A stretch of DNA of 64,000 nt from assembly GCA_027486655.1 (NCBI GenBank), contig JAIXOR010000086.1, positions 124,001-188,000 of the forward strand, written 5' to 3'. The notes below the pieces were generated by a model. It made no database searches. It worked only from the letters and a program-made list of their open reading frames with translations, and was not told the origin of the DNA. Positions 52,967-56,338 of the stretch are shown here, one piece after another. The stretch's first letter is position 1, and each line of letters starts with the position of its first letter. A program made the position numbers and the translations under genes. This DNA comes from Verrucomicrobiaceae bacterium (lineage in GTDB: Bacteria; Verrucomicrobiota; Verrucomicrobiia; Verrucomicrobiales; Akkermansiaceae).

Positions 52967-54196
52967 TCACTCGCCATCCGGAAGATAGGCCGCCTCGCGG
53001 TCGAGTTGAAAGGACCAGCGCAGCGGTGCTTCCACGGCCTTGCCTGCCTTGTCCTTCCAGCTCACGGAAACCTGGCACGTGGGTTGGCGCAGTTTCCGGT
53101 TCACTTGCCAGGAGAACTTTCCGGTCTCCGCAGCGAATTTCGCGGGCACCTCACCGAATCCCGAGACCTTCATCACCAACGTCGCGGGGTCGAGATCGGT
53201 GACCTTGGACAGGTCCGCCGAGATTTCCGGTGTGCGCGAGTTGACGATGGCCCCGGGCTCGGGAACGACCGGGTGGGGTGTGGTCTGGATCATCCCGGCG
53301 ATCGCACCTTCGGGGGCGGCGGCCGGGTTTCCGGATTCGCGGAAGGTGGTGGCGAATTCGAAGATCTTGTCGTAGTTCCCGAGGATCATGTAGCGCGGCA
53401 GGTTTGCATCCGGCATGGATCGTTTCACCTTGCCCGGCTGCACGGTGAAGGCGTGCGTGTAGCCGAACTCCTTGGCCAGCGGCAGCATTTCCTCGGTGAA
53501 AAAGCCACCGGGATACGAATAGGTGGCGGCCTTGACCTTGAACTTGGACTCCAGAAAGCGCTTTGATTCGCCCATTTCCTTGCGCAGATATGCGTCGTAG
53601 GCGTCCGGTCCCTTTTTGCGATGGCTTTTCACCGTGAGCGGATAGGGGTGGCTCACCGAGTGGCTGCCGATGGTGGCGCCGGAGCGGATCATTTCCTCGA
53701 TCATCGCCGTGGTCAGCGCCTTGCCTCCGCCGTCGACGTAGTTTTTGTAGAGGTAGAGGGTGTAGGGATAGCCGAACTCCTTGAGGATCGGAAAGGCATC
53801 GGTGTAAACCGACTTCCACCCGTCATCGAGGGTGATCACGATCGACTTGTCCGGGATTTTGCGTCCGCCGCGTTTCCATTCCGAGAAGTCTTCCAGGGAC
53901 ACCACGCTGATTCCGAGCTGGCGGATGGTTTCCATCTGCTTGCGGAACTTGGAGGTGCGGATGCGCATGGCAGTCTCCGGTGCGGTCTCCGAAAAATCGT
54001 GATATCCGAGCACCGAGACCCGGACGCCGTCATCCGGTTCCTCCTCGACGACGGTGGCGACCGGCGGCGCTGCGGGGGCGGCCTCGGCCGAAGGAGCCGC
54101 GGCAGGCGTCTCCGCCGGCGGAATGACCGGGGCGGGTTCCTGGGCGAGCAGTAGTCCCGCGCTCAGGTGAAGAAGGAGAAGGGTGCGTCGCATCAT
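52967..54196 (-). CDS. exported polysaccharide deacetylase
   Basis: This is a 409-residue protein with a signal peptide (MMRRTLLLLHLSAGLLLA), an Ala/Pro-rich linker (about residues 20-55) and a NodB-homology domain. Metal and catalytic motifs are TLDDGW (Asp pair), HSVSHP (His pair) and the YSYPGG block. It probably removes acetyl groups from a surface glycan or peptidoglycan. I use ATG 54196; the following ATG at 54193 is equally likely. Confidence 0.9.
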   Translation of the reverse strand: MMRRTLLLLHLSAGLLLAQEPAPVIPPAETPAAAPSAEAAPAAPPVATVVEEEPDDGVRVSVLGYHDFSETAPETAMRIRTSKFRKQMETIRQLGISVVSLEDFSEWKRGGRKIPDKSIVITLDDGWKSVYTDAFPILKEFGYPYTLYLYKNYVDGGGKALTTAMIEEMIRSGATIGSHSVSHPYPLTVKSHRKKGPDAYDAYLRKEMGESKRFLESKFKVKAATYSYPGGFFTEEMLPLAKEFGYTHAFTVQPGKVKRSMPDANLPRYMILGNYDKIFEFATTFRESGNPAAAPEGAIAGMIQTTPHPVVPEPGAIVNSRTPEISADLSKVTDLDPATLVMKVSGFGEVPAKFAAETGKFSWQVNRKLRQPTCQVSVSWKDKAGKAVEAPLRWSFQLDREAAYLPDGE

Positions 54197-54270
54197 CGAT
54201 ATTGGAAACCTAGCCGGGGGCGGAGGGATAGGGAAGTCCCAAGAATCCACGCAGCAGTCCGGGTGCGGGA

Positions 54271-56187
54271 TCACTTGAGATCAGAGAGAAAGCCAACGAT
54301 GGCTCCCTGGACGTGCGGGCTGGCGAGATTTCCGAGGTGGCCACCGTCCGGGAACACCCTGAGGTTTTCACGACCCAGGGTGGAGCCGAGCCAGGCAAGG
54401 TCTCCTGGAGCCAGAAGGAAGTCGTTGCGATTGGTGATGACCCGCGCCTTCGATTGACTGCGCAAGGGCGCAGCGAAGTTCCTGAGGGTGACCTGCCGCT
54501 GGAACTCAGCCTGGCTGATTCCCTTGGAAGCGAGATAGGGAACCGCGAAGATGCGGACGTAGTCCTTGAACGAGTAATCCATGATCTCCTCGTAAGCCGG
54601 CTCCCTGCGCCACTTCGAGAGCGGGGTTTGCAGAATACCGAGGTTTTCCCGCGTCTGGCTGCTGAAGATGATGTCGCGAAGGGTCAGGCGGAAATTCGCG
54701 CCGATGAGAAACTTCGACTCGATCGCATCAAACGGCGGAGCCGCCAGTGCGGACGGGGGCAGGGCGGTGAGCCCGCCGACCTTGTGAACGGCATTGTTGA
54801 CCCGTTGCTGCCTGCGGTCCGCAGGCCAGGCGAGCGGAGCATCGTGGAAGCTGTCCACGCACTCGACTCCGTGATGGAGGCTGATCGGCGTGTTGATGCC
54901 GATGTAGCGGTCGAAGCGGAGAAGGTCTGCCGCCTGCCGTTTTTCGTGGGCGGCGAGATAGAGTGCTTGATAGCCGCCCATCGAGCAGCCGACCAGCGCA
55001 CGTTTGCCGAGACGCTCCGGGTGCTGCTTTTCCAGACTGCGGTCGATCGCCGTGAGGGCCGTCAGGAGGTCACCCGTATCCGTCGGCGGATAGGCGGGGA
55101 TCGCGGCGGTCGACGCGTTCTCCATGAACTCCGGGTGGAACACGCTGGCCACGGCGACCACGCTGAATCCATTCTGATAGAGCGCCTCGGCGACGGAAAG
55201 GGTGGTGGTGGAGAGCCGGTGGGAACCGAGCCCGGGCGTGACGTAGACAAGGGGTGCCTTGTGCTTCTGGAGCCAGACATTGAAAGCAAGCCTGCGTCCG
55301 GTCGTGGGAACGACCACGCTTGTCTGCCGTCCGGCATGGGCGAAGCCCGGGTTCTTCGTCTGAATGGCGGCCACTGCCAGCGTCTGCAGGGTGGCCGGGT
55401 CCCGAGGTCCGCGCAAGGTCCAGTCGGGAGCTTCATCCTTGGAGATGTAGGACCAGGCCAGGCGGGTAAGCGAATAGGGATCCGCCTCGGAGCGGACCAT
55501 CCGCGCGGTCTCGCCGCTGCGTTCGGTGATACGGTTGTAGGTGGTGCCGTAGGAGATCCTGCGATAAACGCCCACGTAGTTCCAGGGCTCCGTGGCTTCA
55601 TCGAGAACGCTGCCGGTGGCGCTGCAATCGTCGCTTGGTCCGAGGAACGGGAGCATGACGTAGGTGGATGGTTTCCAGCCCCAACCCTTGAAGGTCTGTG
55701 CGAAATCCGCGCCGGGTTTGGGCATATTCCACCTTGATGCCACGTCGAAGAATCCGGCCACGCCCACGGTGCTGTTGGTGAGGAAACGCAGCGAATCGTC
55801 GCCAGCGTCCTTCCAACGGCCTTGCAGCGTCTCATTCACCAGGCGGCCGGGGTAGAGCACGTTGTGGCTGAAATGGTTGATCGACGAGCGGACCGGCCTC
55901 GGCACGATTGTCTGATAGACACGTCCGGTTGGTTCGATCACGCCAAGCAGGAGGCCCCGGTTCAATCCCCACACCCCGCGGTTCACGGGTTCGAGGGGAT
56001 CCGCGAGGAAGTCCGGAAGGATGGCCGGGGCCTGGGGCCTGCGCGCCTGGACCTGCGGCGGTGGCCCGGCCGTGGGGGAACACGAGGAAGCCCAACCCAT
56101 GGCAAGGATCGAAGTGGTCCGCAGGGCTTTTCCGAACCGGGAGGAGCGGCGGTGCTTAGGGAGGGAACGGGAAACTCGGATGGACAT
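54271..56187 (-). CDS. MlaA (VacJ) lipoprotein fused to an alpha/beta-hydrolase
   Basis: This is a 638-residue two-domain protein. Residues 1-35 form a signal with a weak lipobox (ASSC, C36). Residues about 60-215 are MlaA (DPLEPVNRGVWGLNRGLL, FLTNSTVGVAGFFDVAS, and YVMLPFLGPS), the outer-membrane lipoprotein that removes phospholipids from the outer leaflet. Residues about 285-638 are an alpha/beta-hydrolase with the nucleophile elbow GCSMGG (S402), a candidate acid D589 and H617 in DGGHLGN. I use ATG 56187. No other mla gene adjoins it. Expected in the outer membrane or periplasm, possibly degrading lipids it extracts. Confidence 0.88.
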   Translation of the reverse strand: MSIRVSRSLPKHRRSSRFGKALRTTSILAMGWASSCSPTAGPPPQVQARRPQAPAILPDFLADPLEPVNRGVWGLNRGLLLGVIEPTGRVYQTIVPRPVRSSINHFSHNVLYPGRLVNETLQGRWKDAGDDSLRFLTNSTVGVAGFFDVASRWNMPKPGADFAQTFKGWGWKPSTYVMLPFLGPSDDCSATGSVLDEATEPWNYVGVYRRISYGTTYNRITERSGETARMVRSEADPYSLTRLAWSYISKDEAPDWTLRGPRDPATLQTLAVAAIQTKNPGFAHAGRQTSVVVPTTGRRLAFNVWLQKHKAPLVYVTPGLGSHRLSTTTLSVAEALYQNGFSVVAVASVFHPEFMENASTAAIPAYPPTDTGDLLTALTAIDRSLEKQHPERLGKRALVGCSMGGYQALYLAAHEKRQAADLLRFDRYIGINTPISLHHGVECVDSFHDAPLAWPADRRQQRVNNAVHKVGGLTALPPSALAAPPFDAIESKFLIGANFRLTLRDIIFSSQTRENLGILQTPLSKWRREPAYEEIMDYSFKDYVRIFAVPYLASKGISQAEFQRQVTLRNFAAPLRSQSKARVITNRNDFLLAPGDLAWLGSTLGRENLRVFPDGGHLGNLASPHVQGAIVGFLSDLK

Positions 56188-56338
56188 GGGTGCGCCGGAA
56201 TCAAAGGACATCCCGCAAGGCAACGCAATCCTGCGCACCTGCGGGGCGGCCATCATCGGACGGAAAACCCTCCACGCAAGGGGAAAGCGGACGAATCCCG
56301 CCTGAATGCCCCTGCGTGGTGATCTGCCGGCTGCGAAA

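What the first reader, a model, noticed from the sequence alone, without database searches (positions are those of the whole stretch)
54271..56187. MlaA lipoprotein fused to a complete alpha/beta-hydrolase
MlaA normally stands alone and passes outer-leaflet phospholipids to MlaC. Here the MlaA domain (about residues 60-215) is followed by a hydrolase with GCSMGG nucleophile (S402), a candidate Asp (D589) and His (H617). A lipid extractor carrying its own hydrolase would suggest degradation of mislocalised phospholipids at the outer membrane instead of, or in addition to, retrograde transport. No other mla gene lies nearby. The function is inference; the fusion is in the sequence, on one uninterrupted frame.
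Basis: partly seen in the sequence, partly recalled or inferred. Interest (0 to 1): 0.62.

Follow-up and report, generated by a model that had tools for sequence, protein, structure and literature searches.

The report
Fused lipid extractor and lipase gene
One gene joins a protein that pulls misplaced fats out of the bacterial outer membrane to an enzyme that probably digests them; the same two parts are known as a two-gene pair in Pseudomonas, so this is a fused version of a known clean-up route rather than a new one.

Summary
The fusion is real: one minus-strand frame (54271-56187, 638 aa) with an MlaA domain (residues 62-246, E 1.3e-48) and an alpha/beta-hydrolase with S402, D589 and H617. 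It is no assembly accident. In a 387-genome sample of its phylum (Verrucomicrobiota, by named relatives), 84 of 105 genomes with this hydrolase show both domains in one frame and 10 have them as adjacent genes.

The hydrolase is homologous to MlaY (PA3238) of Pseudomonas aeruginosa (E 9e-27), whose partner MlaZ is an MlaA homologue and whose proposed job is to destroy outer-leaflet phospholipid. The published MlaY triad aligns with this one. So this is a fused MlaZ-MlaY.

All 105 hydrolase genomes have MlaA. Of 152 MlaA genomes, 104 have the hydrolase only, 44 MlaC only, 1 both, 3 neither. The window's genome shows no MlaC and no PldA but keeps one MlaE. Extraction plus degradation instead of MlaC-dependent transport is most likely. 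Activity and substrate are inferred. Novelty: a new variant (fusion, partner swap) of a known kind.

The parts
54271..56187 (-). mlaZ-mlaY fusion gene, 638 codons plus stop (alternative in-frame ATG at 56256, 661 aa)
   Evidence: relatives
56080..56187 (-). N-terminal signal with candidate lipobox (WASSC, Cys36); the Cys is invariant in the 8 sequences of alignment A3
   Evidence: C7 of A3 = residue 36; the lipobox pattern itself is recalled
55450..56004 (-). MlaA (VacJ) domain, residues 62-246
   Evidence: Pfam PF04333 E 1.3e-48; PDB MlaA chains 8i8r, 5nuo, 5nuq at E 9.8e-12 to 2.3e-10 and 1.1e-21 to 9.3e-21 with profile A3
55318..55449 (-). linker between the two domains, about residues 247-290
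   Evidence: between the matches
54274..55317 (-). MlaY-type alpha/beta-hydrolase domain, about residues 291-638
   Evidence: profile A2 match 425.7 bits, the profile includes this sequence; blastp to P. aeruginosa MlaY E 9e-27; mostly confident alpha/beta-hydrolase model
54982..54984 (-). codon of Ser402, candidate nucleophile (aligned with MlaY Ser187)
   Evidence: invariant in 24 of 24
54421..54423 (-). codon of Asp589, candidate catalytic acid (aligned with MlaY Asp388)
   Evidence: 90% or more of 24; Glu in Fusobacterium L046
54337..54339 (-). codon of His617, candidate catalytic His (aligned with MlaY His415)
   Evidence: invariant in 24 of 24

Best explanation
The gene encodes a single-chain version of the MlaZ-MlaY system. 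The N-terminal MlaA/MlaZ domain sits in the outer membrane, probably lipid-anchored through Cys36, and lets phospholipids that have strayed into the outer leaflet pass into its channel. Instead of handing them to MlaC, it passes them to the tethered periplasmic MlaY-type serine hydrolase (S402-D589-H617), which cleaves the acyl esters; the products are recycled. Shown: the fused frame, homology of both halves to MlaZ and MlaY, conservation of the triad, near-mutual exclusion with MlaC across the phylum sample, no match for MlaC or PldA in this genome. Inferred from the P. aeruginosa work: lipid extraction, direct hand-over and phospholipase activity.
For: Window protein against the P. aeruginosa hydrolase: 27% identity over 345 aligned columns, E 9e-27; against its VacJ neighbour: 33% over 166, E 2e-16 (blastp, database size set to 1e6). 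That hydrolase carries S187, D388 and H415 exactly where a paper places the MlaY triad (passage). The same passage says that MlaY together with MlaZ rescues the SDS/EDTA sensitivity of an E. coli pldA mutant. In the plasmid collection the hydrolase half hits 6 of 72,556 records, and in 6 of 6 a VacJ/MlaA gene lies next to it (for four; coordinates for the other two). Phylum sample of 387 genomes: MlaA in 152, MlaC in 47, MlaY-type hydrolase at E <= 1e-12 in 105. Overlap: 105 of 105 hydrolase genomes have MlaA; of 152 MlaA genomes 104 have hydrolase without MlaC, 44 MlaC without hydrolase, 1 both, 3 neither. Of the 105, 84 show both domains in one frame and 10 have adjacent separate genes. Catalytic Ser and His invariant in 24 of 24 aligned hydrolases. 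Own genome: no MlaC, no PldA.
Against: No activity, substrate or localisation is shown for any verrucomicrobial member. Identity to MlaY is only 27%. The genome keeps an MlaE permease and MCE proteins, so transport is not excluded. Neither AlphaFold job gave a usable MlaA domain (pLDDT under 50), so channel and interface are untested. In P. aeruginosa the genes stand in the order hydrolase then MlaZ, the reverse of the domain order here. In the MlaA tree the Pseudomonas/Skermanella/Fusobacterium MlaZ rows fall among stand-alone MlaA, not with the verrucomicrobial fused or split ones, on weak branches. Exceptions to the partner rule: 2 MlaC genomes have no MlaA (G155, and G357 whose MlaC match is below cut-off), 3 MlaA genomes have neither partner, G172 has both. 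Absences rest on a loose first look of which only a few candidates per genome are scored, in genomes that are partly drafts.
Confidence: 0.76

Rival explanations
1. The fusion still feeds retrograde transport: the MlaA half hands lipid, or the lysophospholipid and fatty acid products, to the MCE (MlaD/MlaE) transporter without MlaC, and the hydrolase is an accessory or editing step.
For: G000 has one MlaE-type permease and MCE proteins; 360 of 387 genomes have MlaE. Long MlaD forms that may bridge the envelope without MlaC are described in PMC10665443 (section 9 read).
Against: Reading the table against the table, 10 of the 105 MlaY-type genomes have no MlaE match (G014, G031, G058, G097, G144, G164, G200, G232, G258, G331; all drafts, 80-97% complete; the last three are inferred from their absence from the table of matches). 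360 genomes have MlaE but only 152 have MlaA, so MlaE is not tied to the fusion. The same paper finds no beta-barrel MlaD in the PVC group.
Confidence: 0.2
2. The hydrolase is an acyltransferase or acts on another lipid (hopanoid or neutral lipid ester, acylated surface glycan) rather than degrading glycerophospholipid.
For: Fold searches give many kinds of alpha/beta-hydrolase (esterases, thioesterases, dehalogenases) with no specific family (the 50 VIA rows have Z 16.7-18.7); no specific Pfam or NCBIfam family for the hydrolase half or for 5 relatives scanned.
Against: Homology to MlaY, and the strict tie to MlaA, a phospholipid channel. Passages of PMC11977310 report that MlaY mutants do not degrade cardiolipin on sphingosine treatment and that MlaY with MlaZ rescues an E. 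coli pldA mutant.
Confidence: 0.15
3. The fusion is an assembly or frameshift artefact, or a decayed inactive hydrolase.
For: One of 8 named relatives, L008, is broken by frame changes in a low-coverage assembly.
Against: 84 genomes show both domains in one frame; Ser and His invariant in 24 of 24.
Confidence: 0.01

Closest known systems
MlaZ-MlaY (PA3239-PA3238) of Pseudomonas aeruginosa
   Same: MlaA-family protein plus homologous alpha/beta-hydrolase with the same triad; separate from the MlaC route
   Different: Two genes, hydrolase first, in a species that also has a canonical Mla pathway (passage). Here one chain, MlaA half first, and no MlaC match in the genome.
Canonical Mla pathway (MlaA-MlaC-MlaFEDB)
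   Same: MlaA domain; an MlaE permease exists in the genome
   Different: No MlaC match; MlaA carries its own hydrolase
PldA (outer-membrane phospholipase A, PF02253)
   Same: Removes outer-leaflet phospholipid by hydrolysis (passage)
   Different: PldA is a beta-barrel (recalled); no PF02253 match in this genome; here an alpha/beta-hydrolase on an MlaA domain

Membership tests
MlaA (PF04333) | profile match above the curated cut-off over nearly the whole domain | tested here: met
   165.7 bits against cut-off 25, positions 2-189 of 195
MlaA (PF04333) | ring-shaped outer-membrane fold with a lipid channel | tested here: inconclusive
   sequence match to solved MlaA, but both AlphaFold jobs failed on this half
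MlaZ-MlaY system | MlaA-family component | tested here: met
MlaZ-MlaY system | hydrolase homologous to MlaY with Ser-Asp-His triad | tested here: met
   E 9e-27; S402/D589/H617 align with S187/D388/H415; profile alignment
MlaZ-MlaY system | the two components genetically coupled | tested here: met
   coupled by fusion here; adjacent genes in the 6 plasmid-collection records and in 10 sampled genomes
MlaZ-MlaY system | degrades outer-leaflet phospholipid in vivo | not testable with these tools
   needs wet work
Canonical Mla (MlaA-MlaC-MlaFEDB) | MlaC in the genome | tested here: not met
   no PF05494 match in G000, 98.5% complete
PldA (PF02253) | PLA1 beta-barrel domain | tested here: not met
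   no Pfam PLA1 match in the protein or in the genome

The most novel reading that the evidence does not exclude
In a large part of the Verrucomicrobiota phylum, outer-membrane lipid asymmetry is kept mainly by in-place extraction and destruction through a single fused MlaZ-MlaY protein, with no MlaC-dependent retrograde transport. MlaA proteins have two alternative partners, MlaC or MlaY, that almost never coexist in one genome, and the MCE transporters left in these genomes do something else, perhaps anterograde transport.
Probability: 0.4. Interest if true: 0.65.

Novelty: new variant of a known kind. Interest (0 to 1): 0.5.

Why it matters
In the passages seen here MlaZ-MlaY is discussed for P. 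aeruginosa (and reported as not detected in Stenotrophomonas maltophilia), and MlaABC is described as mostly proteobacterial (PMC10665443). Here the MlaY type is the commoner partner of MlaA in a phylum sample (105 of 152 MlaA genomes). A single chain fixes the stoichiometry and proximity of extractor and enzyme, which makes hand-over from channel to active site directly accessible to structure determination and mutants. The partner switch bears on the debate over transport direction: where MlaC is missing, MlaA cannot feed the classic route.

Tried and rejected
Artefact: rejected. Canonical Mla: rejected, no MlaC match. PldA-type enzyme: rejected. Specific Pfam or NCBIfam family for the hydrolase: none above cut-off. 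Solved MlaY structure: none found; the profile's best PDB hits are esterases and other hydrolases at E 9e-4 to 7e-3, and the VIA list shows many kinds of esterase. Structure of the MlaA half and of the interface: failed twice with 8-row alignments, mean pLDDT 55.9 for the whole chain (residues 1-274 under 50, hydrolase half mostly above 60) and 36.3 for the MlaA part alone.

Number of fusion events: quick trees of the MlaA domain (78 rows) and the hydrolase domain (60 rows) put the fused proteins in two groups, one of them with the split pairs, but the AU test does not reject a single fused clade (p 0.53 and 0.063), so one or two origins is open. In the hydrolase tree the Pseudomonas/Skermanella/Fusobacterium set sits beside the window's fused group, in the MlaA tree among stand-alone MlaA, so a shared ancient MlaZ lineage is not shown. 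Rows left out before the trees: L008, L031, L065, L067 (broken or cut), L009 from the hydrolase tree, duplicates or short loci L001, L010, L011, L033, L034, L036-L038, L040-L043, and profile matches under 100 bits. The canon group in the MlaA tree included L057 and L058, whose genomes have no MlaC match, and plasmid-borne copies whose partner I did not check.

One search read the minus-strand loci on the wrong strand; one search replaced it for those. Distribution outside the phylum: only the plasmid collection was searched; whole genomes of other phyla were not. The founding MlaY/MlaZ paper (Guest and others, PNAS 2023) is not held; what I say of it comes from passages in PMC11131202, PMC11977310, PMC12569750, PMC10925693 and PMC10474453 and from recall. 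Searches in whose listings I saw no paper on an MlaA-hydrolase fusion: 2 of 2 listed; 15 of 23; 15 of 98; none found; 20 of 1,080; 10 of 23; 10 of 11; I saw titles and abstract starts of the listed rows, passages of six papers and one section of PMC10665443. Unlisted rows were not seen.

Full report
What is there. On the minus strand of the window, 54271-56187 is one uninterrupted frame of 638 codons plus stop. Residues 62-246 match Pfam MlaA at E 1.3e-48 and three solved MlaA sequences at E 9.8e-12 to 2.3e-10. The second half matches only generic alpha/beta-hydrolase models, all below their cut-offs, but an AlphaFold model of that half is mostly confident and aligns with solved esterases at Z up to 18.7 (5g59, rmsd 3.3, 242 residues).

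Is it real? Eight loci from named Akkermansiaceae, Verrucomicrobiaceae and Verrucomicrobiales MAGs encode relatives at 48-59% identity. Six of the eight are one open frame over both domains, one is cut by its contig end and one is broken in a low-coverage assembly. In the 387-genome phylum sample the protein query finds matches in 152 genomes, many of them full-length and in several families.

What the hydrolase is. A tblastn of the hydrolase half against 72,556 plasmid records hits 6: three P. aeruginosa, two Skermanella, one Fusobacterium. Four were opened and each has a VacJ/MlaA gene directly after the hydrolase; the coordinates put one beside it in the other two. The same collection holds 66 records with an MlaA-family match to MlaZ, so a hydrolase neighbour is the exception there. 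The P. aeruginosa protein has S187, D388 and H415, the residues given for MlaY in PMC11977310 (passage), so I take it to be MlaY/PA3238. The window protein aligns with it at 27% over 345 columns, E 9e-27, triad on triad, and with its MlaZ neighbour at 33% over 166, E 2e-16. A profile alignment of 24 hydrolases (fused, split, Pseudomonas, Skermanella, Fusobacterium) keeps the catalytic Ser and His in 24 of 24 and the Asp in 90% or more.

The partner switch. In the same 387 genomes MlaA occurs in 152, MlaC in 47 (46 over cut-off) and the MlaY-type hydrolase at E <= 1e-12 in 105. All 105 hydrolase genomes have MlaA, so none of the 235 genomes without an MlaA match has a hydrolase match. Among the 152 MlaA genomes, 104 have hydrolase only, 44 MlaC only, one (G172) both, three neither. 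Read off, MlaA and MlaC lie within 1 kb of each other in 44 of the 45 genomes that have both (G379 has them on different contigs). G172 carries two MlaA genes, one beside MlaC and one fused. Of the three with neither, G265 has an MlaA frame that runs off its contig end; G268 and G311 remain without a partner. A Fisher test gives p 1.9e-33, but it treats genomes as independent; by family code, of 33 families with MlaA 13 have the hydrolase, 21 have MlaC and 2 (f3, f39) have both. By frame, 84 of 105 show both domains in a frame of the same length, 9 have the hydrolase in a frame over 600 aa with the MlaA row unlisted or of different length, 10 are adjacent separate genes, G156 is fused but cut by its contig, and G364 is unresolved. 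The sample is of one phylum, drawn by the tool; absences depend on a loose first look and on draft genomes.

The window's genome. G000 (5.33 Mb, 98.5% complete) has this as its only MlaA match, no MlaC, no PldA, one MlaE and MCE domains in two frames. Presence is patchy around it: in the sampled family f1 only G000, G240 and G265 have MlaA, and G251 of the same genus has none. In named relatives the order pyruvate carboxylase, fusion, polysaccharide deacetylase, Ffh is complete in L003 and partly seen in L002 and L007; no such neighbour was found in the other five. Those gene names are my reading of the sequences, not from a family search.

How it most likely works. [quoted passage not shown] The analogy rests on homology, triad and coupling; extraction, hand-over and catalysis are inferred. 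Passages from three papers describe the P. aeruginosa route as extraction by MlaZ and destruction by MlaY; one of them cites rescue of an E. coli pldA mutant by MlaY with MlaZ.

What is new. The passages seen discuss MlaYZ for P. aeruginosa; one says that no similar system was detected in Stenotrophomonas maltophilia. PMC10665443 (section 9 read) scanned 1083 genomes for MlaA and MlaC and reports MlaABC as mostly proteobacterial; its text has no occurrence of 'hydrolase'. I saw no paper on the fusion in the searches listed under Tried and rejected, whose listings were capped. I therefore class it as a new variant of a known kind: a fused MlaZ-MlaY that in this phylum stands in for the MlaC route.

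Noticed in passing
window 52967-54274 (-): A gene that reads like a polysaccharide deacetylase (my reading, no family search) follows the fusion; its longest frame overlaps the fusion's stop by 4 bases, and a relative lies within about 1.1 kb downstream of the fusion in L002, L003 and L007.
   Followed up: partly
L045 3740-9059 and L047 3740-9053: In Skermanella the hydrolase-MlaA pair is followed directly by an annotated TamB-domain gene, hinting at a link between lipid degradation and an AsmA-like transporter.
   Followed up: no
L079 (G287:C372) and G325:C437: An MlaE permease gene lies about 3 kb from the fusion on the opposite strand in these two genomes.
   Followed up: no
G172:C1: One genome holds both a stand-alone MlaA beside MlaC and a fused MlaA-hydrolase about 1 Mb away: a natural comparison of the two routes.
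   Followed up: partly
G268, G311 (L057, L058): MlaA without an MlaC match and without the MlaY-type hydrolase: a possible third partner.
   Followed up: no
family f1, genus g2: None of the sampled genomes of this genus has an MlaA match, and 10 of them also lack an MlaE match.
   Followed up: no
PMC11977310, passages: The paper calls MlaY a PldA homologue and integral membrane protein, yet also an alpha/beta hydrolase; in Pfam the P. aeruginosa sequence gives only sub-threshold alpha/beta-hydrolase hits and no PldA match.
   Followed up: partly
L092 (Azospirillum sp. B510 plasmid): An MlaA gene is followed by an annotated alpha/beta hydrolase, cut at the end of the stretch; my profile gave no match on the part held.
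   Followed up: no
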